In this document: positions 3,830-24,009 of the stretch, piece after piece
Numbering within the stretch: the stretch's first letter is position 1
How the letters are laid out: each line of letters opens with the position of its first letter
DNA from: a virus
Length of the DNA: 24,009 nt
Reading direction: 5' to 3' (one strand)
IMG/VR virus record: IMGVR_UViG_3300040751_002419
Location: 1-24,009 of that record
Position numbers and translations under genes: made by a program
Notes under the pieces: generated by a model
Told to the model about the DNA's origin: nothing
What the model saw: only the letters and a program-made list of their open reading frames with translations
Databases searched by the model: none

Positions 3830-5591
3830 TTGTTACATTAATTTTTTCAGAAAGATTATCTAAATCATAGAAGAATGCATATTGAAAATCTTCTAAATTA
3901 TAATTTTGTGATGTACTGGTATAATTTGTATCATACACAACATCCCAAATATAAAGATTCAACCCATTAGAAACTCTATCCCCATTTTTTGTTGATATAG
4001 ACGAAACACCATTTATATTTAATATTTTATTGTTTAATTCTTGAAGATTTATTGTTTGTCCAAGTTCAAAATTTGAAGGGAGAAAGTAATTTTTAAAAAT
4101 ATTTACAATTTGTGTTTTAATATTTTTAATATCAATATTAGATGAACTTGTTGTAACTTCTAGCGTTGTTTCCGATATATCACCTAACGATACAGTATCC
4201 CCAATACCAGTGATGCCGATATCAACCCCCATATAAACTGGGTCTTGAATTATAATGTCAAGAGATATTTCCTTCTTATCTTCCATCGCATCGATAATAG
4301 TTTGTTTTTGAGCAGGATTGATATAATTAATTCGTCTTAATGTAGAAAATTTCTGCTCAACTCTTGGGACAACATATATATAAACGTTATTAAAATTACA
4401 TGGAGTTGAAAAGAAATATTGATTTGTTAAAATACGACCATCTTCAAATGGATACGCTACACCAATTTGTGATAAATATCCAATATGGTTTTCAAGAAAA
4501 TCTCGATTATTTATAACCTTAACTGAACTGATTATACCACTATAGTTATTTTTAACAAACGATGTAAAGTCATTTTTACTAATTAAACGATTTTGGCTTT
4601 GATAGAAAATGGACGCATTCGATTTAATATTATCAACACTTTCTTTAACTGATGATTTAGTCGATGGTAAATTATTTGAGAACGAAATATTAGAAACATC
4701 TGATGTTGATATATAGTTGATATCATTAATATCTGATAAAATTTGATTTATTCTAGGTGTGCTAAATATAGTCATTTGACCACTAAGGAAATCTTGTGTA
4801 ACTTCACCTTCTTCGCCTTGGCTATTTAAATAAAATACACTTACGATATCCCCACGTTGTAATGCTGAACCATTAATACCATCACCAAAAATAATATCAT
4901 AATCTGAATTTTCATTTAAACGAACAGAAAAATTAGTTTCATCATAATCTGAAAAGTATAAATCCTCAACTTGTTTCCATTCTGACCACACCCCATTTCT
5001 TTGAACATATACGTCGATTGTATTTGAATCAATGTATTTATCACTTGCTGAAAGAGTGATAATCTCTGATGCATCGCCAACAGATGTATAGTCACCTAAT
5101 CTCTCATACTTACCATTGTATAAAATATATGAGTTAGAAAACTCCGTGAGAGTTTCTTGGGTATCTGTGGTTTTAACGAATGTTCCATCTTTAACTAAAG
5201 AATAGCTTATACCATCAATATTAAAGAATGAATATCTTGGGATACTATATACACCTTTTGCGAGTGTAGATGTAGCGGTAAATCCCAATGTAGCAGTTAC
5301 AACCCCTCTTGGTTTATATGCAATCAACTTAACAATCCTGTTAACGTTTTCGTAAAACTCTGCCTCCGAAAACATAGACTCTTTAGATGTTTGGTTTAAA
5401 TAGAATAAAAGAGTATTATTAGCATATGCTAATATATCTAGTAGATTATTTAAGTTGCTACCAACGAATTTTTGATCTGTAAACCATTCATTATCAGATA
5501 GTTTCTGAATCATATAAGATTTAAATGATTCAGCATCAAAGTTTAGATACGCATCTGTTGGTAAATTGTAGTTTATGTAGTTTTCTGCCAT
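3822..5591 (-). CDS. 6: Baseplate wedge subunit gp6-like
   Basis: 589 residues, a little shorter than T4 gp6 (660). The N-terminus (residues 1-110) has the family's helical opening with a conserved NLNNLLDILAYANN-type stretch. A beta-rich middle ends in the characteristic IIFGDGINGS segment (FGDG at 235-238) followed by a V-x-V-x-Y strand, the hallmark shared by gp6 and the baseplate J family. gp6 dimers tie neighbouring wedges into the ring around the tail hub, so this is a virion structural protein assembled in the cytoplasm. It lies 30 bases after gp25 and overlaps the next large gene by 8 bases, the order expected for a T4-like baseplate cluster. The start at 5591 is supported by a late-promoter-like box just upstream. 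Confidence 0.9.
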   Translation of the reverse strand: MAENYINYNLPTDAYLNFDAESFKSYMIQKLSDNEWFTDQKFVGSNLNNLLDILAYANNTLLFYLNQTSKESMFSEAEFYENVNRIVKLIAYKPRGVVTATLGFTATSTLAKGVYSIPRYSFFNIDGISYSLVKDGTFVKTTDTQETLTEFSNSYILYNGKYERLGDYTSVGDASEIITLSASDKYIDSNTIDVYVQRNGVWSEWKQVEDLYFSDYDETNFSVRLNENSDYDIIFGDGINGSALQRGDIVSVFYLNSQGEEGEVTQDFLSGQMTIFSTPRINQILSDINDINYISTSDVSNISFSNNLPSTKSSVKESVDNIKSNASIFYQSQNRLISKNDFTSFVKNNYSGIISSVKVINNRDFLENHIGYLSQIGVAYPFEDGRILTNQYFFSTPCNFNNVYIYVVPRVEQKFSTLRRINYINPAQKQTIIDAMEDKKEISLDIIIQDPVYMGVDIGITGIGDTVSLGDISETTLEVTTSSSNIDIKNIKTQIVNIFKNYFLPSNFELGQTINLQELNNKILNINGVSSISTKNGDRVSNGLNLYIWDVVYDTNYTSTSQNYNLEDFQYAFFYDLDNLSEKINVTNG

Positions 5592-5597
5592 TTCAAT

Positions 5598-5605
5598 TAT
5601 TTATT
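5598..5605 (-). promoter_or_regulatory. Late promoter box (variant AATAAATA) for gp6
   Basis: Reads AATAAATA on the minus strand, one mismatch from the T4 late consensus TATAAATA, with 6 bases (ATTGAA) between it and the gp6 ATG. It lies in the 30-base gap after gp25 and matches the spacing seen at gp25 and gp21. Confidence 0.6.
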
Positions 5606-5621
5606 AAATATTTTTGATTTA

Positions 5622-6089
5622 TCAAATATTTGTGAACCCATTCTCAGTAAAAATGCTACGATAAACAACATCCTTATTGAGTGATGGTATAGTTAGGTTT
5701 AATGATATATCATAACTATTGTATTCTTCATCAACAACAACTTCAACAAATTTAAGTGTTACCCTTGATTCATATTTGCGAATACCTTGTTCGATTTTAC
5801 GACCAATTAATCTAGCGGTATATTCATTTGCATTTTCAAACAAAAATTGAGATAAATCCAACCCATATTCTGGGTCGAGTAGCCTTTGTTTTGGTCGTGT
5901 TGAAAAAAGGTTTCGCAATGAATTCGCAATAGCATGTTCATCAAAATCTGTTTTGATGTCACCATTACCACCACCTCTTGTTAAATTAGATTCACCATAC
6001 GGAGTATATTCATTTTCCATATCCAAAGAAAGGTCAGAATAGGTGTAATCTGTTTTAAAATTTTTTTCAAATTGAATAGAAATTGCCAT
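5622..6089 (-). CDS. 25: Baseplate wedge subunit gp25-like
   Basis: 155 residues, versus 132 for T4 gp25. Residues about 50-145 match the GPW/gp25 fold: a helix (ANSLRNLFSTRPKQRLLDPE) leading to the conserved P-x-x-G-x-x-L-x-x-F-L-F-E pattern at 73-85, then a long helix and beta strands. gp25 sits in the inner wedge next to gp6 and helps nucleate sheath polymerisation. The N-terminal 45 residues, with a Gly/Asn-rich stretch, are extra relative to T4. It is the first gene of this minus-strand block, preceded by an exact TATAAATA box 6 bases before the ATG and with no Shine-Dalgarno site. Confidence 0.92.
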   Translation of the reverse strand: MAISIQFEKNFKTDYTYSDLSLDMENEYTPYGESNLTRGGGNGDIKTDFDEHAIANSLRNLFSTRPKQRLLDPEYGLDLSQFLFENANEYTARLIGRKIEQGIRKYESRVTLKFVEVVVDEEYNSYDISLNLTIPSLNKDVVYRSIFTENGFTNI

Positions 6090-6095
6090 TTTAAT

Positions 6096-6103
6096 TATTT
6101 ATA
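6096..6103 (-). promoter_or_regulatory. Late promoter TATAAATA for gp25
   Basis: Exact T4-type late box; the minus-strand context is TATAAATAATTAAAATG. If T4 geometry holds (box at about -13 to -6), transcription starts one base before the ATG. It is divergent with the box at 6136-6143. Confidence 0.85.
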
Positions 6104-6135
6104 ACAAAAATTGATTTGAAAAAACATTCCAATTT

Positions 6136-6143
6136 TATAAATA
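6136..6143 (+). promoter_or_regulatory. Late promoter TATAAATA for the 6162-6686 gene
   Basis: Exact box on the plus strand followed by ATTAAAAC, 18 bases before the ATG at 6162. It stands back-to-back with the gp25 box, 32 bases away, and the two form an inverted repeat. Confidence 0.8.
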
Positions 6144-6161
6144 ATTAAAACTATATTTAAT

Positions 6162-6686
6162 ATGAAATTTAATAAAAAATTTAAAAAATATTCTAAAATG
6201 TTCCTTGAGGGTGTAATTGCACAAGAACATTTACCAATCCATCAAGGTGATCAAGTAGAATTTGCTAAGGATTGGGCTAAAAAGCTACCAGATATCGCTA
6301 ACACTAGTACAGGTCAACGTATCAAAGAGATGATTGATCAAACTGATAATATTCTTATTGCAACATCTATTTCTGGTAAAAAACCTATGGCATATGGTTC
6401 ACATGGTTCTCAAGAAAATAACCCAGCTATGGAAACAGAATATGTTGTCACAGTTGGGGAACAATATGCATTGGGGCTTTATAAAAATATCGTAACTGTT
6501 CCTATGAATGCTTTAGTTGGTGTTAATAACGGAGTCAATCTACCCCCTCTGTCCAAAAACCAACAAGAAAAGGAGAGGAAACAAAATTACAAAGGTGAAG
6601 AACCTAAGATTGATAAAACATTATCTGACCCAACTTCACAAACACATGCATCATGGAAAGATCATGGTGGAGGATTACCTAGTTAA
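6162..6686 (+). CDS. Unknown late protein, 174 residues
   Basis: I do not recognise the family. The protein has a very basic N-terminus (four FK/K-rich residues pairs in the first 12 positions), a central mixed alpha/beta part of about 110 residues, and a hydrophilic tail from about residue 128, rich in Lys, Glu, Gln and Gly, that looks disordered. There is no signal peptide or membrane segment. It stands alone on the plus strand between two minus-strand structural blocks, has its own exact late promoter, and is followed by two strong hairpins with T-runs, so it is a single-gene late transcription unit. Late timing and position between baseplate genes suggest a virion or assembly role, which is inference only. 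Its stop overlaps the stop of the convergent 59-residue gene by 3 bases. Confidence 0.85.
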   Translation: MKFNKKFKKYSKMFLEGVIAQEHLPIHQGDQVEFAKDWAKKLPDIANTSTGQRIKEMIDQTDNILIATSISGKKPMAYGSHGSQENNPAMETEYVVTVGEQYALGLYKNIVTVPMNALVGVNNGVNLPPLSKNQQEKERKQNYKGEEPKIDKTLSDPTSQTHASWKDHGGGLPS

Positions 6687-9842: not shown

Positions 9843-10565
9843 ATGAACCTAAAAGAAACCAAACTAAAAAACAACGTAATCACCCAAGATATACGCTTAG
9901 ATCGAATTGAGGATTTTGATCCACGCAGTAAATCTTTCCCAATTTCGGATATTCAAAAATCTAAAAAACTTAGATCATATACATGGAGATGTGAAGAATG
10001 GTTTGATCAAGAAGCTGAAGGAAAATGTGTCGGCTACGCACTTGGTCATGAGTTATGTGCTAGACCAAGTGAAGTTCTTGGATTGACTAACCAGTTTTTA
10101 ACACAAAAAATTTATTGGGAAGCACAAAAAATTGACCCTTGGGTTGGTGGGGCATATCCAAATGCCGAAAGATTTTATGAGGGTACTTCATTATTAGCTG
10201 GGATTAAGATCGTTAAACAATTAGGGTTTATTAAATCATATAGATGGGCATTTTCTATTGAAGAAACATTATATGGTCTTGGACATAATGGCCCTGCCGT
10301 ATTGGGTATCCCTTGGTTCTACGACATGTATTTTCCAGATTCTAATGGATTTATTAAACCAACTGGACGACGTGTAGGTGGACACGCCATCCTAGCTAGA
10401 GCTATCAACGTTAAGGAAGGGTATGTGACACTACGTAATTCTTGGGGACAAGATTGGGGTAAAAACGGGGACTGTTACATTACATTTGATGATTTAGAAC
10501 AGGTTCTAAATCAAAATGGTGAATGTGCATTCCTGTTAAACCGAACAATAAACCCTAACAAATAG
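9843..10565 (+). CDS. Papain-like (C1A) cysteine protease
   Basis: 240 residues with the complete papain catalytic set in order: Gln56 (oxyanion hole) in DQEAEGKCVGYA, nucleophile Cys62, His181 in VGGHAILARA, and Asn199 in the diagnostic N-S-W-G (199-202) followed by W-G-x-x-G. There is no signal peptide and no long inhibitory prosegment, so if active it would fold active in the cytoplasm or as part of the virion. It is a lone plus-strand gene with its own exact late promoter, so it is made with structural proteins. Roles that fit are processing of virion proteins, degradation of host factors at lysis, or injection with the particle; the sequence does not decide. It converges on the DUF1289 gene and overlaps it by 11 bases. 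Confidence 0.88.
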   Translation: MNLKETKLKNNVITQDIRLDRIEDFDPRSKSFPISDIQKSKKLRSYTWRCEEWFDQEAEGKCVGYALGHELCARPSEVLGLTNQFLTQKIYWEAQKIDPWVGGAYPNAERFYEGTSLLAGIKIVKQLGFIKSYRWAFSIEETLYGLGHNGPAVLGIPWFYDMYFPDSNGFIKPTGRRVGGHAILARAINVKEGYVTLRNSWGQDWGKNGDCYITFDDLEQVLNQNGECAFLLNRTINPNK

Positions 10566-13567: not shown

Positions 13568-13900
13568 TTAATAGCCAAGTAATCTACGTCTACGTTTATT
13601 TCGCCCAGAATTAGATACTGTAGGTTCAACTGTCGGTTCAACTGTCGGTTCATCTGTCGGTTCAACTGTCGGTTCAACTGTTGGTTCAACTGTCGGTTCA
13701 ACTGTCGGTTCAACTGTCGGTTCAACTGTTGGTTCAACTGTCGGTTCAACATCAACCATTATAGGTTTTTTGCCCACAAGCCCATGTTCGGTCGTACTTT
13801 TAGCTCTTGTACTTTTAGCTCTTGTAGTTTTAGCTTTTGTAGTTTTAGCTTTTGTAGTTTTAGCTTTTGTAGTTTTAGTTGTTGTTTTTTTTCTAGCCAT
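13568..13900 (-). CDS. Low-complexity basic/acidic repeat protein, 110 residues
   Basis: Three compositional blocks are visible. Residues 1-38 are strongly basic, with 5-residue repeats of the form K-T-T-K-A, like histone-H1 tails. Residues about 50-93 are eleven E-P-T-V-type tetrads (one D-E-P-T variant), acidic and proline-rich. The last 13 residues are basic (G-R-N-K-R-R-R-R). An exact late promoter (13915-13922) and a strong terminator (13481-13520) make it a single-gene late unit. The basic ends suggest nucleic acid or capsid binding joined by an extended linker, which is inference; I know no family for it. An overlapping minus-strand frame (13555-13755) is only the repeat read out of frame. 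Confidence 0.78.
   Translation of the reverse strand: MARKKTTTKTTKAKTTKAKTTKAKTTRAKSTRAKSTTEHGLVGKKPIMVDVEPTVEPTVEPTVEPTVEPTVEPTVEPTVEPTDEPTVEPTVEPTVSNSGRNKRRRRLLGY
13623..13754 (-). repeat. 12-bp tandem repeat, about 11 units
   Basis: Near-identical 12-base units GGTTCAACTGTC (plus strand), with variants ending TT and one GGTTCATCTGTC. They encode the E-P-T-V tetrads. The variants are synonymous or nearly so (V/V, one V to D), and copy changes stay in frame. Confidence 0.92.
13792..13881 (-). repeat. 15-bp tandem repeat, about 6 units
   Basis: Units of the form TTTTGTAGTTTTAGC on the plus strand, encoding the K-A-K-T-T repeats at the N-terminus of the same protein. Units nearer the centre have drifted to Arg/Ser codons. 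Confidence 0.88.
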
Positions 13901-16327: not shown

Positions 16328-16355
16328 ATTATCTATATATTCTTAGGGTTGTCAA
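16328..16355 (-). promoter_or_regulatory. Sigma70-like promoter for the small-gene operon
   Basis: TTGACA (16350-16355), 16-base spacer, GATAAT (16328-16333). The -35 is read as Leu-Asp-Asn codons at the end of the endonuclease gene, and the -10 overlaps its stop region. It implies early expression. Confidence 0.68.
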
Positions 16356-18033
16356 GATATTTTTCAAATTTTAATTTACCACAATCCCATATAATATCAT
16401 AACCATTATTTTTGAGATTTTCCCATTCTGTTAGATTTTTATCATAGTTCTCAAATCTGTTTTTAATGTATTTGTGTCTAAATTGTCGCTTATCTATGGT
16501 TACATATGGGTATCTACCAGTTGTAACTCGATAATTCGGTGGATTAGTTTCGGTTAAATTAAACCCTAATTTATAATACATATCACCATTTGACCATCGT
16601 TTATCTGCAAATGTGGTTATCTTATGTGGCTTATAATTTCTTTCAAAATATTTTAACAATTTACCTGCCCCACCTATAACATTGAAATGAAAATTACAAC
16701 AATACCTGTTTAATACCCATTCATTATTTTGGTTTTCTTTCTTAAATGTCATAATAGATGTTATTCTATTATTGTAAAATAATCCCAACTTTATTGAAGA
16801 ACTATCATTCTTTAATAAATGATATTTATCTAGAAATGATTTTTTAATTTTATTGTCAATTAATCTAACCCCACACTTTCTACCATATATTGATATTTTA
16901 TTTTTTTTGAAAATAGAATTTAATTTAGATACAACTATCTTTTCATCATGAACTATCTCATCTTCATTTATATGATATAATTGGATACCTAACTTTTCAC
17001 ACTCTTTTGTTTTATTAAGATGATACGACATCCCCTTACCCCCAAGAAATTGGGTGTGATATCTCAAGCCATTAATTTCAAATGCAATACCCTTATCTTT
17101 AAAATAAAAATCCAGTTCTTTATTATCCTCTAATATACCGCGTTTTCTTTCTTCAAATATGATATCATTATCTTCTAAATATTTTTTAATAAACTCTTCA
17201 AGTCTTGATTTTTTATTGTTACACTTTTGACAACCATGCTCACCGTTTCTATGGTCAAATATACTTTGAAAGAAAAATTCTTCGTGCTTATTACATAATA
17301 TCTTTATCTTGGTTCTTGTTATACCATCATAATCTTTTTCAGCCAAACTGTAATCATATGTATCTTCACCATGAATTCGATTACAATCCTCTACAAACTC
17401 TTCGAATGATATAGACTTATCAAACTTCAAACACTCAACACATCCCCCAAATTTACTATGTATATGGTTATTAGGGGTGACTTCAACACTTGTGTTATGT
17501 TTATTACATTTTAAAATACCTTTAGTAAATGCATTAACATATACAAAATTAGAATAATCATAGGTGTCTCCGAATATATTTTTAGATGATATTATAAAAT
17601 CATCTAAATTTCTAATTTGATTGCTCTTTAAACATACTGGACAAACCTTTAATTTAACGTGGTTACTTGGTGTTTGTTCGAATGTATTATTGCAGGTATT
17701 ACATTTAATATTTATTTTTGTATGGGAATCTACATATATCACATCAGAATAGTCAAATAAATCTCCATGTAATTTTTTAAAATTAGATATTACAGTTGTT
17801 AATGATAATTTATTTTGATTCGATATTTTGTTATTAGAACATGTAGGACAACCTTGCTTATTTATTAAATGGTTAACAGGGGTCTTCTCAAATATAGTGT
17901 AACATGTATTACATTTAATCTTTAATTTAGTTTTATTGTTTATGTAGTTAGATAAATTGTAATCATATTTATCGCCGTGTATTTTTACAGCACTTTCTAT
18001 AAATTGTTCGGTTGTTTTTCGTTTACTAGTCAT
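16333..18033 (-). CDS. Free-standing homing endonuclease-like protein 1 (Vsr-like nuclease with Cys repeats)
   Basis: 566 residues in three parts. Residues 15-271 hold four repeats of about 60 residues, each with H-G-x-x-Y-D-Y near the start, a C-x-x-[CH] pair, a T-P-x-x-H and a closing C-x-x-C, so probably zinc-binding DNA-recognition modules. Residues about 275-375 are a Vsr/EDxHD-type nuclease with Asp308, Glu319 and His326 as likely catalytic residues. Residues 385-560 form a C-terminal domain with V-I-G-G-A-G-K-L-L and Y-Y-K-L-G-F, which resembles the CoA-binding loop and motif B of GNAT folds. Such free-standing genes spread by cutting phage genomes that lack them. It sits just after the gp23 terminator and has both a late box and a TTGACA upstream. 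A relative lies at 21470-22936. Confidence 0.82.
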   Translation of the reverse strand: MTSKRKTTEQFIESAVKIHGDKYDYNLSNYINNKTKLKIKCNTCYTIFEKTPVNHLINKQGCPTCSNNKISNQNKLSLTTVISNFKKLHGDLFDYSDVIYVDSHTKINIKCNTCNNTFEQTPSNHVKLKVCPVCLKSNQIRNLDDFIISSKNIFGDTYDYSNFVYVNAFTKGILKCNKHNTSVEVTPNNHIHSKFGGCVECLKFDKSISFEEFVEDCNRIHGEDTYDYSLAEKDYDGITRTKIKILCNKHEEFFFQSIFDHRNGEHGCQKCNNKKSRLEEFIKKYLEDNDIIFEERKRGILEDNKELDFYFKDKGIAFEINGLRYHTQFLGGKGMSYHLNKTKECEKLGIQLYHINEDEIVHDEKIVVSKLNSIFKKNKISIYGRKCGVRLIDNKIKKSFLDKYHLLKNDSSSIKLGLFYNNRITSIMTFKKENQNNEWVLNRYCCNFHFNVIGGAGKLLKYFERNYKPHKITTFADKRWSNGDMYYKLGFNLTETNPPNYRVTTGRYPYVTIDKRQFRHKYIKNRFENYDKNLTEWENLKNNGYDIIWDCGKLKFEKYLDNPKNI

Positions 18034-20579: not shown

Positions 20580-20723
20580 TTATTTATTTTTAGATTTAGA
20601 AATGGTTTTTATTTTACCACTGATTTTACCTTCAATGATAGCTGATATATTACCTTTAGCTTTAGAATAATCGCCATCGGAAATATTTTTTAAAAGTTGA
20701 TGAATTTCTTTTTTATTGCTCAT
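20580..20723 (-). CDS. Small prohead-core-like peptide, 47 residues
   Basis: An ATG at 20723, placed 7 bases after an exact late box, opens 47 codons ending in TAA two bases before gp22. The peptide is basic in its last 16 residues (six Lys) and contains A-I-I-E|G at 28-32, which fits the [IL]-x-E cleavage rule of T4-type prohead proteases. T4 encodes small core proteins 67 and 68 next to gene 21, though on its other side. I infer a core or internal peptide; sequence homology to gp67 or gp68 cannot be shown by eye. Confidence 0.72.
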   Translation of the reverse strand: MSNKKEIHQLLKNISDGDYSKAKGNISAIIEGKISGKIKTISKSKNK

Positions 20724-20730
20724 TTTTAAT

Positions 20731-20738
20731 TATTTATA
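20731..20738 (-). promoter_or_regulatory. Late promoter TATAAATA for core peptide/gp22
   Basis: Exact box, minus-strand context TATAAATAATTAAAAATG; 7 bases separate it from the ATG, so the predicted mRNA has about a 2-base leader. Confidence 0.85.
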
Positions 20739-20752
20739 AAATAACCCAAAAA

Positions 20753-21430
20753 TTATTTAATTTTTGATATAAAATTCATGATCTGCTCCATTAAGTATTT
20801 CTCAATATCTCTCTTTGGAAGGTGATCTATTGATTCTTGAAAACCATCATAGATAATTTCATTGCCTTGATTATAATTAATCATGAATTCTTTATTCTCT
20901 AAAATACCATTAACAAAGCAACTTGCATTCTTTCCTTGACCACTTGGTTCCCAAACTGTGTCTGTCGCCACCATGCGTGGACCTTTTACATAATTCACGC
21001 CATTACTCTCAGTTAATTGTCCAAGACAACGAGTAGATTTGCCTAATTTGACCCCATCTCTAATTAAACTCTCTTGGAGTTTACCCATAGGTGTTGATAA
21101 ACATTGTGCTTTACCAATATAAACATTTCCTTCTTTAATTAAAGAAATTGTCATATCACATGCACGTTCTAAATTAACATCAGCCTCGTTAGGGTGATTC
21201 ATCTCATTTAGAGCGCGTTTTGTATTAACATATTTTTCAATGTATGTCTCCACACACGGGTCCATCTCCGACGATTCATAGATTCTCCCGTTTTGATTCT
21301 TTTCATCAAGCATGATGAACGGACCTTTAATATAATATTTTGGTTCAGAATTATTATTTTTCTCTTCAACCAAATATTCAAAAGAATCTACATCTACATC
21401 TTCAACAATTAATTTATACTTACTTTGCAT
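20753..21430 (-). CDS. 21: Prohead core protease gp21-like
   Basis: 225 residues (T4 gp21 is 212). This serine protease (herpesvirus-assemblin-like fold) matures the head by cutting gp22, gp23 and core peptides. Landmarks are the strand into G-P-F-I-M-L-D with N-G-R-I-Y (47-51), catalytic His79 in L-N-E-M-N-H-P, and the nucleophile region L-G-K-S-T-R-C-L-G with Ser132, where other members usually have V-S-S-R-G-x-G. A self-cleavage site L-I-V-E|D may lie at residues 7-11. The gene has an exact late box 6 bases before its ATG. The endonuclease 2 gene ends 40 bases upstream, and a broken copy of this gene's first 65 bases lies at 22967-23032. Confidence 0.93.
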   Translation of the reverse strand: MQSKYKLIVEDVDVDSFEYLVEEKNNNSEPKYYIKGPFIMLDEKNQNGRIYESSEMDPCVETYIEKYVNTKRALNEMNHPNEADVNLERACDMTISLIKEGNVYIGKAQCLSTPMGKLQESLIRDGVKLGKSTRCLGQLTESNGVNYVKGPRMVATDTVWEPSGQGKNASCFVNGILENKEFMINYNQGNEIIYDGFQESIDHLPKRDIEKYLMEQIMNFISKIK

Positions 21431-21436
21431 TTTAAT

Positions 21437-21444
21437 TATTTATA
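21437..21444 (-). promoter_or_regulatory. Late promoter TATAAATA for gp21
   Basis: Exact box, minus-strand context TATAAATAATTAAAATG, identical to the gp25 arrangement. It is missing from the degenerate copy at 23030-23046. Confidence 0.88.
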
Positions 21445-21469
21445 AAATGCAAAGCAATTTTAAATATAA

Positions 21470-22936
21470 TTAGTAAATTTTCTCAAAAACCATATTTCCA
21501 CAATCCCAAATACGATTCCATCCATTTTCAACCATATTTTCCCATTCGGTTTTATTGGAATCAAACTTAGGTAATTTTTTAGATAATTCGGATTTTCTAA
21601 AATTGAAACGATGATAAAGTTTAGAATTATTACTATCATTAAAATACCAATAATTGGGTTTACTATCATGTGTATGGGTAAATCCTAATTTGAAATATAG
21701 ATCACCTTTTGACCACCTTTTGTCAGCATATGTAACAATTTTTTTAGGATTATAGTTTCTTTCAAAATATTTTAATAATTTACTAGCTCCACCAATAACA
21801 TAGAAGTTAAAATTACCACAATATCTTGATAATTCATATTCACCTTCTTCGGATGTTTTTTTACCCATAGCTATACGCCTTTTACAAAATGTCATAACCG
21901 ATACCAAATGATCATTATAAAATAATCCAAGTTTAACTGAAGATTTATCATTACCTTGAAGATGGTATTTGTTTAAGAATTTGGATTTTAATTTAGTATC
22001 AATTTCTCTAACTTCGCATTTTCTACCATGAATTTTTCTTTTTGAAATGTTGAGAATTGATTTAAGTTTAGATTCAACAATTCTCGGTGTATTATCAATT
22101 TCATTTTGATTTATATGGAATAATTGAATATCTTTTTCTTTACATAAATTTGTTTTATTAAGGTGATAATTTTTATCTTTACCCCTTAATTCAGAATGCC
22201 AGTAAATACCGTTAACCTCTATAGCTATTTTATAATCAAGTAAATAAAAATCTAATTCTAATGGGGGTATTACATCTCTGATGCGCTCTCTGAATATTAT
22301 TCCCTTTAATTTGGTTTTTAAAAATTCTTCATATTTTGATTCAGTTGATGAGCACTTAGGGCAACCACATCCTTTTGATATATGGTTATTCGCCGTTTGA
22401 AAAAACGAACCATGTATTGGGCAAATTATTTCAATTTTGTCTAACGATCTTCTATAATTAACAAGAGAATAATCATATGTGTTACCATGAACATAATTTA
22501 CTTTACCCAAAAATTGCTCAGTAGATAATACTTTCACACATCGTTTACACCCTTGACCACTTAGATGTTTTTTCGGTTTTTGAAAAAATGAACCATGTAT
22601 CGGACAGATTATTTCAATTTTATCTTGTCTAGTATAATAATTTACATTAGAATAATCATATTTATCACCATGTAAAATTTTAGCAGATTCTATAAATTTA
22701 GACGTATTTGATTTTAAATATTTTACAGTTTCATCTTGACCACATTTTGGACAACCGAATTTACTTTGAATATGAGATGCGGGGGTTTGTAAAAAATCAC
22801 CATGATCTGGACAATTTATTGTTACCTTCGAACAATTATTGTTATATTCAACATTAGAATAATCAAATTTATTTTTGAATTTCTTATTTGCAGTCTTAAA
22901 AAATGCTTGCGCTCTATACTCTATAGATTTTGGCAT
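21470..22936 (-). CDS. Free-standing homing endonuclease-like protein 2 (Vsr-like nuclease with Cys repeats)
   Basis: 488 residues with the same design as protein 1 but three rather than four recognition repeats (about 20-65, 88-133, 148-195), each with D-Y-S-x-V-x-Y, C-P-x-H-G-x-F and C-x-x-C. The nuclease part has Asp229 in L-E-L-D-F-Y, Glu240 in I-E-V-N-G and His247 in Y-W-H-S-E. The C-terminal 185 residues contain V-I-G-G-A-S-K-L-L and L-Y-F-K-L-G-F, GNAT-like features, and end W-N-R-I-W-D-C-G-N-M-V-F. It sits directly upstream of gp21, in the place where portal and core genes would be expected to adjoin it. Its promoter is of host type (TTGACA), not late. The remnant at 23044-23151 is the end of a different relative. 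Confidence 0.82.
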   Translation of the reverse strand: MPKSIEYRAQAFFKTANKKFKNKFDYSNVEYNNNCSKVTINCPDHGDFLQTPASHIQSKFGCPKCGQDETVKYLKSNTSKFIESAKILHGDKYDYSNVNYYTRQDKIEIICPIHGSFFQKPKKHLSGQGCKRCVKVLSTEQFLGKVNYVHGNTYDYSLVNYRRSLDKIEIICPIHGSFFQTANNHISKGCGCPKCSSTESKYEEFLKTKLKGIIFRERIRDVIPPLELDFYLLDYKIAIEVNGIYWHSELRGKDKNYHLNKTNLCKEKDIQLFHINQNEIDNTPRIVESKLKSILNISKRKIHGRKCEVREIDTKLKSKFLNKYHLQGNDKSSVKLGLFYNDHLVSVMTFCKRRIAMGKKTSEEGEYELSRYCGNFNFYVIGGASKLLKYFERNYNPKKIVTYADKRWSKGDLYFKLGFTHTHDSKPNYWYFNDSNNSKLYHRFNFRKSELSKKLPKFDSNKTEWENMVENGWNRIWDCGNMVFEKIY

Positions 22937-22942
22937 TTTACT

Positions 22943-22970
22943 ATATTATTATATATTTAATTATTGTCAA
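22943..22970 (-). promoter_or_regulatory. Sigma70-like promoter for endonuclease 2
   Basis: TTGACA (22965-22970), 16-base spacer, TAATAT (22943-22948), 6 bases before the ATG at 22936. The first four bases of the -35 belong to the gp21 remnant, so the element was created at the junction. Confidence 0.55.
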
Positions 22971-23032
22971 CCAAATATTCAAAAGAATCTACATCTATAT
23001 TCTTCAACAATTAATTTATACTTACTTTGCAT
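22967..23032 (-). pseudogene. Remnant of gene 21 5' end
   Basis: 66 bases nearly identical to the first 65 bases of gp21 (21366-21430), including the ATG, with one inserted base near 22998 that shifts the frame. Homology stops at the equivalent of codon 22. Confidence 0.9.
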
Positions 23033-23043
23033 TTTAAATATAA

Positions 23044-23151
23044 TTAGTAAATTTTCTTAAAAACCATATTTCCACAATCCCAAATACGGTTCCATCTATT
23101 TTCAACCATATTTTGCCACTCTATTTTATTGGGGTTAATAAAATTACCTAA
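23044..23151 (-). pseudogene. Remnant of an endonuclease 3' end (35 codons plus stop)
   Basis: Reads L-G-N-F-I-N-P-N-K-I-E-W-Q-N-M-V-E then a stretch ending I-W-D-C-G-N-M-V-F-K-K-I-Y and a stop. It is closely similar to the end of endonuclease 2 but differs in its first dozen residues and several others, so it comes from a separate allele. The fragment begins immediately after the stop codon of the tail-fibre-type gene, in the same frame. Confidence 0.88.
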
Positions 23152-23757
23152 CTACCATGAGATTGCTTCTAGTTCAGCAAACGTTGATGCTGTCATAACT
23201 GCTTGAGTGAGTCCATGTAGCTTAATAGAGTAGATACCAAAGTCTCTGCCTTGAATCGCCTCACGGATAGTAACCATATCATCAACGCCTAGATTAACGA
23301 AAGACCCGTCAACGCATTTGTAGTTGGGATATTCGCCATTCTCCAAAATTGGTGATGTACCAGCATTCACAAGATTTTCAATCCCTTCTAGGTGGATTAG
23401 AGTCCTTGCATCGACGTGGAATGTCCCAATCCCATCCACAATGATATCTGATTCAGACTCAATTCTTGCGGCTTCTCTGAACGCATTTAGCTTACGTTCC
23501 TTAGCTGCGTCTGGATCGCTTTGAAATCGTTCCTCTTGACGCGCAGCTAGTCGGGCAAGACGTTCAATCTCTCGCATCTCTCCCAGTGTCTTTAACTCAC
23601 CATCTACTAAAAATAGTGGATCGTTTGATGCTTCAATGGTTGCTGCCTGTTCGTCAGTAATCGCCACGATCTCCATACCGTCAAAAGTTGTCAGTGTGCC
23701 TGTATCACCAACTCTGAGGATGTAGTGTCTTTCGATGTTTATTAATGCTTCTTTCAT
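23152..23757 (-). CDS. DUF4376-type tail-fibre chaperone-like protein (paralogue)
   Basis: The start at 23757 (M-K-E-A-L-I-N-I) gives 201 residues and lies one base after the upstream stop; a longer start at 23844 would overlap that gene and is rejected. The layout matches 7602-8168: beta-rich N-terminus, an Arg/Glu-rich helix (about 75-110), then V-D-G-I-G-T-F-H-V-D, D-G-S-F-V-N-L and a final helix ending A-E-L-E-A-I-S-W. It probably helps assemble the protein encoded upstream. Its GC content is well above that of the adjacent endonuclease and gp21, and it sits among head genes, which is not its usual place, so recent import is likely. Confidence 0.76.
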   Translation of the reverse strand: MKEALINIERHYILRVGDTGTLTTFDGMEIVAITDEQAATIEASNDPLFLVDGELKTLGEMREIERLARLAARQEERFQSDPDAAKERKLNAFREAARIESESDIIVDGIGTFHVDARTLIHLEGIENLVNAGTSPILENGEYPNYKCVDGSFVNLGVDDMVTIREAIQGRDFGIYSIKLHGLTQAVMTASTFAELEAISW

Positions 23758-23758
23758 A

Positions 23759-24009
23759 TTATATGTAGGTTGGGAAGGATGAGAAATCTGCCTCCGTGAC
23801 TGTGTAACCTGTTGACACTCCCGCTTGGGCATCTGCGTCAGCAATCATCTGGTTGAGCGCGTCGATGTGCTCGCAGACCGCCGTCCCTGCACCTGCACCT
23901 CCCCATGTCCAAGCGGTAATTAGTACGAGTTCCCCATTAAGTATGACAAATGCAGGGTTGCCCGAATCACCAACAATCTTATTTTCGTGGAATATTAACC
24001 TGTTGGCAT
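23759..24009 (-). CDS. C-terminal end of a protein with trypsin-like GDSG motif (5' end off window)
   Basis: 83 codons are visible, ending in TAA at 23761-23759. The segment includes V-G-D-S-G-N-P-A-F-V-I, the nucleophile motif of chymotrypsin-fold serine proteases, followed by hydrophobic strands (E-L-V-L-I-T-A-W-T-W-G-G), then a helix and a Y-T-V-T-E-A-D-F-S tail. The catalytic His and Asp would lie beyond the edge, so activity cannot be judged. With a DUF4376 gene next door, the whole protein is likely a tail-fibre or surface protein bearing a protease-like domain. GC content is the highest in the window. Confidence 0.7.
   Translation of the reverse strand, partial: ANRLIFHENKIVGDSGNPAFVILNGELVLITAWTWGGAGAGTAVCEHIDALNQMIADADAQAGVSTGYTVTEADFSSFPTYI

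What the first reader, a model, noticed from the sequence alone, without database searches (positions are those of the whole stretch)
22967..23151. Scar of an endonuclease and gene 21 pieces: HEG'-21'-HEG-21 arrangement
Reading in gene direction, the order is end of a broken endonuclease, start of a broken gene 21, intact endonuclease 2, intact gene 21. The broken endonuclease differs from endonuclease 2 in many residues, so it is not a simple recent copy but the trace of a second element once in the same site. This records repeated homing or recombination at the 5' edge of gene 21.
Basis: seen in the sequence. Interest (0 to 1): 0.75.

Follow-up and report, generated by a model that had tools for sequence, protein, structure and literature searches.

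The report
Decayed duplicate of endonuclease–gene 21 junction
In an uncultured T4-like phage, a selfish DNA-cutting gene sits just before the capsid-protease gene 21, and a small decayed second copy of the endonuclease-gene 21 junction lies just upstream: a rearrangement scar beside an ordinary kind of phage homing endonuclease.

Summary
Reading the minus strand, a tail-fibre-like gene is followed by the last ~29 codons of an endonuclease (23044-23132), the first 65 bases of gene 21 plus a frameshifting base (22967-23032), an intact Hef-like endonuclease (HEG2, 21470-22936) and intact gene 21. The claim that the fragment differs "in many residues" is overstated. It matches HEG2 in 95/102 bases and gene 21 at 97%; the best other database HEG reaches 86% over 65 bases. 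Both copies share the same HEG-to-21 join, so the scar is a decayed second copy (or close allele) of the same element at the same junction, not a different element. The copy lost 28 bases between TTAAAAT repeats, including gene 21's late promoter, which HEG-less relatives keep. None of 84 other gene-21 loci has a Hef-like HEG upstream of gene 21, and none of the other HEG loci scanned has such flanking repeats. Most likely a HEG2-21 junction was duplicated in tandem by break repair or illegitimate recombination, then truncated where a tail-fibre cassette now joins. The HEG-21-22-23-HEG layout is a known kind (HEG island; HEG remnants are common). The order of events is inferred, and reads were not available.

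The parts
23152..23760 (-). DUF4376 tail-fibre-like gene (202 aa from ATG) that abuts the scar
   Evidence: Weak Pfam DUF4376 match E=0.003; relative at 7602-8168 matches DUF4376 at 4e-7 and PHROG tail fiber. G+C 45.8% against 27% in HEG2.
23133..23151 (-). 19 bases of unassigned joint between the tail-fibre stop and HEG'; contains TTAGGTAATTTT, an inverted match to HEG2 at 21567-21578
   Evidence: No colinear match; the 12-base inverted match was reached in 33 of 2000 composition-matched trials, so only suggestive
23044..23132 (-). HEG': last ~29 codons and stop of an endonuclease, no start codon
   Evidence: 95/102 bases identical to HEG2 over 23031-23132; next best HEG 86% over 65 bases
22967..23032 (-). 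21': first 65 bases of gene 21 plus one inserted base; no late promoter
21470..22936 (-). HEG2: intact 488-aa Hef-like homing endonuclease with N-terminal zinc-finger-like repeats and an EDxHD/Vsr-like nuclease core
   Evidence: PHROG 559 (E=1e-129), PHROG 3339 homing endonuclease (3e-97), DUF723, weak Vsr; PDB 3r3p with a profile, E=1.7e-7
21420..21457 (-). 15-bp hairpin with the late promoter TATAAATA (21437-21444) across its loop and the gene 21 start codon in its 3' arm; its 5' arm, loop and late promoter are absent from the remnant
20753..21430 (-). gene 21, prohead protease, intact
   Evidence: Pfam Peptidase_S77 E=5e-22; PHROG 207 head maturation protease E=1e-47
16333..18033 (-). HEG1: second intact Hef-like endonuclease, downstream of gene 23; with HEG2 it brackets genes 21-22-23
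   Evidence: PHROG 559 E=3e-127; relatives hold HEGs at the same place

Best explanation
The scar is the decayed upstream copy of a tandemly repeated HEG2-gene 21 junction. A Hef-like free-standing homing endonuclease gene settled just upstream of gene 21's late promoter. Break repair or illegitimate recombination then placed a second HEG-21 junction in tandem: either duplication within one genome, or one-sided repair that copied HEG plus 21 from a near-identical phage and joined its upstream end to the broken 21'. The upstream copy, free of selection, lost its late promoter by deletion between TTAAAAT repeats, took point changes and a frameshift, and lost all but its last ~29 HEG codons where a tail-fibre cassette now joins. 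Intact HEG2 and promoter-bearing gene 21 remain. Shown: the duplication, shared join, promoter loss, decay, and HEG-less relatives. Inferred: the recombination route, the order of events and HEG2's nuclease activity.
For: The two copies share HEG 3' end, stop, TTATATTTAAA and gene 21 start, at 93% over 102 bases and ~97% over 66. HEG' is nearest to HEG2 among all HEGs found. Relatives L005, L006, L024 and L025 (gp21 70-81% identical) have no HEG here and keep ATAAATAATTAAA directly before the ATG, so the promoter-bearing form is ancestral and the remnant lost it. The 28-base gap lies between TTAAAAT repeats that flank one arm of a strong hairpin, a usual setting for slippage deletion. Judged against the other HEGs, 6 of the 7 mismatches are changes on the remnant side, 4 of those 6 altering residues, as expected of unconstrained DNA. 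Homing-endonuclease-driven tandem amplification that truncates the HEG itself is documented for SegB in T6 (PMC13096335).
Against: No intermediate (full HEG-21'-HEG-21) was found. HEG' differs more than 21' does (9/102 with the adjacent CC/TT difference vs 2/80; Fisher p=0.12), so joining of two already diverged alleles is not excluded. Nothing shows that HEG2 cuts DNA, or where.
Confidence: 0.68

Rival explanations
1. One reading: HEG' is what is left of a different endonuclease that held the same site before HEG2 homed in and displaced it.
For: HEG' keeps some states shared with outside HEGs and not HEG2 (e.g. CCCC before AATAAAA, as in L009 and L011), so it does not descend from HEG2 as it is today.
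Against: HEG2 is its closest relative by a wide margin, the join to gene 21 is the same apart from the 28-base deletion, and 21' is nearly identical to the resident gene 21. HEG2's own derived changes explain the shared outside states.
Confidence: 0.17
2. Assembly artefact: two strain variants of the locus were joined in a metagenome contig.
For: The window is a metagenomic virus fragment. Two contigs of another metagenome both stop inside HEG 3' ends that share 99 identical bases, so HEG ends do disturb assembly in this group.
Against: The longest exact match between the two copies is 37 bases, neither outer joint lies in a repeat, and the copies differ by indels.
Confidence: 0.09
3. The upstream copy has a present-day job, such as a decoy target or a repeat that allows HEG2 to be excised by recombination.
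For: The repeats (~165-190 bases) flank HEG2, so recombination between them could remove it.
Against: 21' is frameshifted and promoterless, HEG' has no start, and changes look unconstrained. None of the other HEG loci scanned has such repeats.
Confidence: 0.06

Closest known systems
Hef / EDxHD (Vsr-like) free-standing phage homing endonucleases (phage U5 Hef; I-Bth0305I nuclease core, PDB 3r3p)
   Same: PHROG 3339/559 membership, zinc-finger-like N-terminal repeats, nuclease core matching 3r3p, free-standing gene next to an essential late gene
   Different: Site is the 5' side of gene 21; no such pair was found in 50,697 phage records or 84 gene-21 loci. Activity and cut site unknown.
HEG islands bracketing capsid genes (Barth, Dunham and Seed 2023, PMC10448857)
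   Same: Two HEGs flank genes 21-22-23; the paper reports such brackets around capsid genes and lists the scaffold protease in its key
   Different: One edge here also carries a decayed duplicate of the HEG-gene junction and meets a tail-fibre cassette.
SegB-driven segmental amplification in phage T6 (PMC13096335)
   Same: Tandem repeat of a homing-endonuclease region in which the endonuclease is truncated
   Different: GIY-YIG enzyme, selected amplification of a tRNA gene, fresh repeats; here an old two-copy scar with no known benefit.
Truncated HEG remnants in Skunavirus (PMC12724721)
   Same: Partial endonuclease genes left in phage genomes are common (56 of 268 there)
   Different: HNH family; no linked duplicate of the neighbouring essential gene's start was seen in the passages read.

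Membership tests
Hef-like EDxHD free-standing homing endonuclease (HEG2) | Sequence membership in the phage homing-endonuclease family | tested here: met
   PHROG 559 E=1e-129 and PHROG 3339 E=3e-97; annotated 'Hef-like homing endonuclease' relatives in phages
Hef-like EDxHD free-standing homing endonuclease (HEG2) | EDxHD/Vsr-like nuclease core | tested here: met
   A profile of 7 HEGs matches 3r3p, E=1.7e-7; weak Vsr match below cut-off. Catalytic residues were not assigned one by one.
Hef-like EDxHD free-standing homing endonuclease (HEG2) | Free-standing gene, absent at the same site in relatives | tested here: met
   No HEG upstream of gene 21 in 84 loci
Hef-like EDxHD free-standing homing endonuclease (HEG2) | Cuts the HEG-less allele and is inherited by homing | not testable with these tools
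   Needs biochemistry or mixed infection
HEG island (PMC10448857) | Essential genes bracketed by HEGs | tested here: met
   HEG2 and HEG1 flank genes 21, 22 and 23
HEG island (PMC10448857) | Bracketed genes more than 90% identical between otherwise unlike phages | tested here: not met
   Best relatives share 75-83% DNA identity over genes 21-23; only a few relatives were available
Tandem duplication scar | Direct repeats that include the join of two neighbouring genes | tested here: met
Tandem duplication scar | Full two-copy intermediate in a relative | tested here: not met
   None in the fetched loci

The most novel reading that the evidence does not exclude
A Hef-like (EDxHD) homing endonuclease makes tandem copies of itself with the start of its neighbouring essential gene during failed or one-sided homing, so that it ends up flanked by direct repeats through which it can later be lost: a SegB-like duplication route in another enzyme family.
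Probability: 0.2. Interest if true: 0.5.

Novelty: new member of a known kind. Interest (0 to 1): 0.32.

Why it matters
It gives a readable record of how a homing endonuclease can duplicate part of its neighbour and leave scars at the edge of an essential capsid gene. It also places a Hef-like HEG at a site where none was found in the phage records searched, at a border with a tail-fibre cassette. If break repair made it, duplication by homing endonucleases would not be limited to SegB.

Tried and rejected
Megablast of 20600-24009 in phage records: no match. An exact HEG-end pattern in viral contigs: none. A gene 21 search in bacterial and archaeal genome contigs: no relative. A search for a joined HEG2+gp21 place in phages: no record covers 80% of the joint query (pairs further apart than the joining limit would be missed). 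HEG1 as the source of HEG': rejected, only 18/20 bases align. Inversion at the tail-fibre joint from a 12-base inverted match: kept only as a hint (33 of 2000 trials). A gene-21 start hairpin as a general trait: rejected as general (mean z -0.2 over 52 loci), though strong in this window, L024, L086 and L007.

Full report
What is there. The window is a 24,009-base virus record, a metagenomic fragment. In gene direction (minus strand) it ends with a tail-fibre-like gene (DUF4376-type, 23152-23760), then the scar, HEG2 (21470-22936), gene 21 (Peptidase_S77, 20753-21430), a gene 22-like ORF, gene 23 (Gp23, E=7e-90) and HEG1 (16333-18033).

The repeat. 23031-23132 matches 21457-21558 in 95 of 102 bases, and 22967-23032 matches the first 65 bases of gene 21 with one substitution and one inserted base. 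Against the rest of the record this repeat scores E=1e-54. The remnant holds the last ~29 HEG codons and stop, then TTATATTTAAA, then 21', which shifts frame after ~11 codons. Over 28 alignable residues HEG' and HEG2 differ at 4.

Same element, not another. HEG' is 93% identical to HEG2; the next best, L009 and L011, reach 86% over 65 bases; HEG1 hardly aligns. Using the other HEGs as outside reference, 6 of 7 mismatches are on the remnant side, and 1 (plus an adjacent CC/TT difference) on the HEG2 side (polarised by eye). So both have changed since they parted. The copies share the same join between HEG and gene 21, hence one junction was copied, or two close alleles of one element were joined.

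Which form is older. In relatives with no HEG here (L005, L006, L024, L025; gp21 70-81% identical), ATAAATAATTAAA stands right before the gene 21 ATG, as in the intact copy. The remnant lacks 28 bases that hold this promoter. The gap lies between two TTAAAAT repeats. The remnant therefore derives from a promoter-bearing HEG-21 junction by deletion. L005 also has TAATTATATTTAAA upstream of its promoter, matching the HEG2 stop region, which marks the 3' edge of the HEG insertion.

How common. None of 84 gene 21 loci (79 with over 500 bases upstream) has a Hef-like HEG upstream of gene 21, while several have one downstream of gene 23. In 50,697 phage records no place covers 80% of a joined HEG2+gp21 query. 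Of 35 HEG spans scanned (33 besides the window's two, several of them the same contig fetched twice), only HEG2 of this window is flanked by long direct repeats; one other contig, fetched three times, shows a 22-base match.

What HEG2 is. It belongs to PHROG 559 and 3339 (homing endonuclease) and its core matches 3r3p, the only PDB hit, at E=1.7e-7 with a profile. That 3r3p is I-Bth0305I, the EDxHD type enzyme, is from my own knowledge. Hef of phage U5 targets nrdB (PMC2988022).

Mechanism. Free-standing HEGs move by cutting an HEG-less allele at a distance and by repair that copies the HEG with flanking DNA (PMC2988022). A one-sided repair that copies gene 21, promoter and HEG and then joins to a broken 21', or a tandem duplication in cis, gives HEG-21'-HEG-21. 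SegB in T6 produces tandem repeats with a truncated endonuclease (PMC13096335). The first HEG later lost its 5' part where a tail-fibre cassette now joins. L007 carries a similar cassette on the other side of gene 21, so gene 21's flanks look like exchange borders, in line with PMC10448857. These steps are inferred.

Limits. No reads, no sister genome with the full two-copy form, no activity data. Assembly error is unlikely because the longest exact match between the copies is 37 bases and neither outer joint is in a repeat, but not excluded.

Verdict. A real and tidy scar. The parts are known kinds (Hef-like HEG, HEG island, HEG remnant); the duplicated HEG-gene junction is unusual among the loci seen.

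Noticed in passing
21420-21457: A 15-bp hairpin holds the gene 21 start codon in one arm and the late promoter across its loop (RNA z -6.3). L024/L025 have a hairpin at the same place with different but again complementary arms; L086 and L007 have ones too; most gene 21 loci do not. It resembles T4 leaders that hide a start in read-through mRNA but not in late-start mRNA.
   Followed up: partly
L009 and L011, right ends: Two contigs of the same metagenome both end inside a HEG 3' end with 99 identical bases, a sign that HEG ends are repeated in that phage population.
   Followed up: partly
L107 (L011) 4927-6561: A Hef-like HEG in opposite orientation lies where gene 21 would be expected next to gene 22; gene 21 is not on the contig.
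   Followed up: no
L007 5667-9168: LRR and DUF4376 tail-fibre-like genes sit between genes 21 and 22, and gene 21 reads in two overlapping frames.
   Followed up: no
21470-22936: HEG2 and L010 share 82% DNA identity over ~800 bases of the C-terminal part but differ at the N-terminal finger repeats, as in domain shuffling.
   Followed up: partly
13568-13900: A 110-aa ORF with a lysine/threonine-rich start and a run of about ten PTVE repeats.
   Followed up: no
9843-10565: A plus-strand 240-aa ORF that by eye resembles a papain-type cysteine protease.
   Followed up: no
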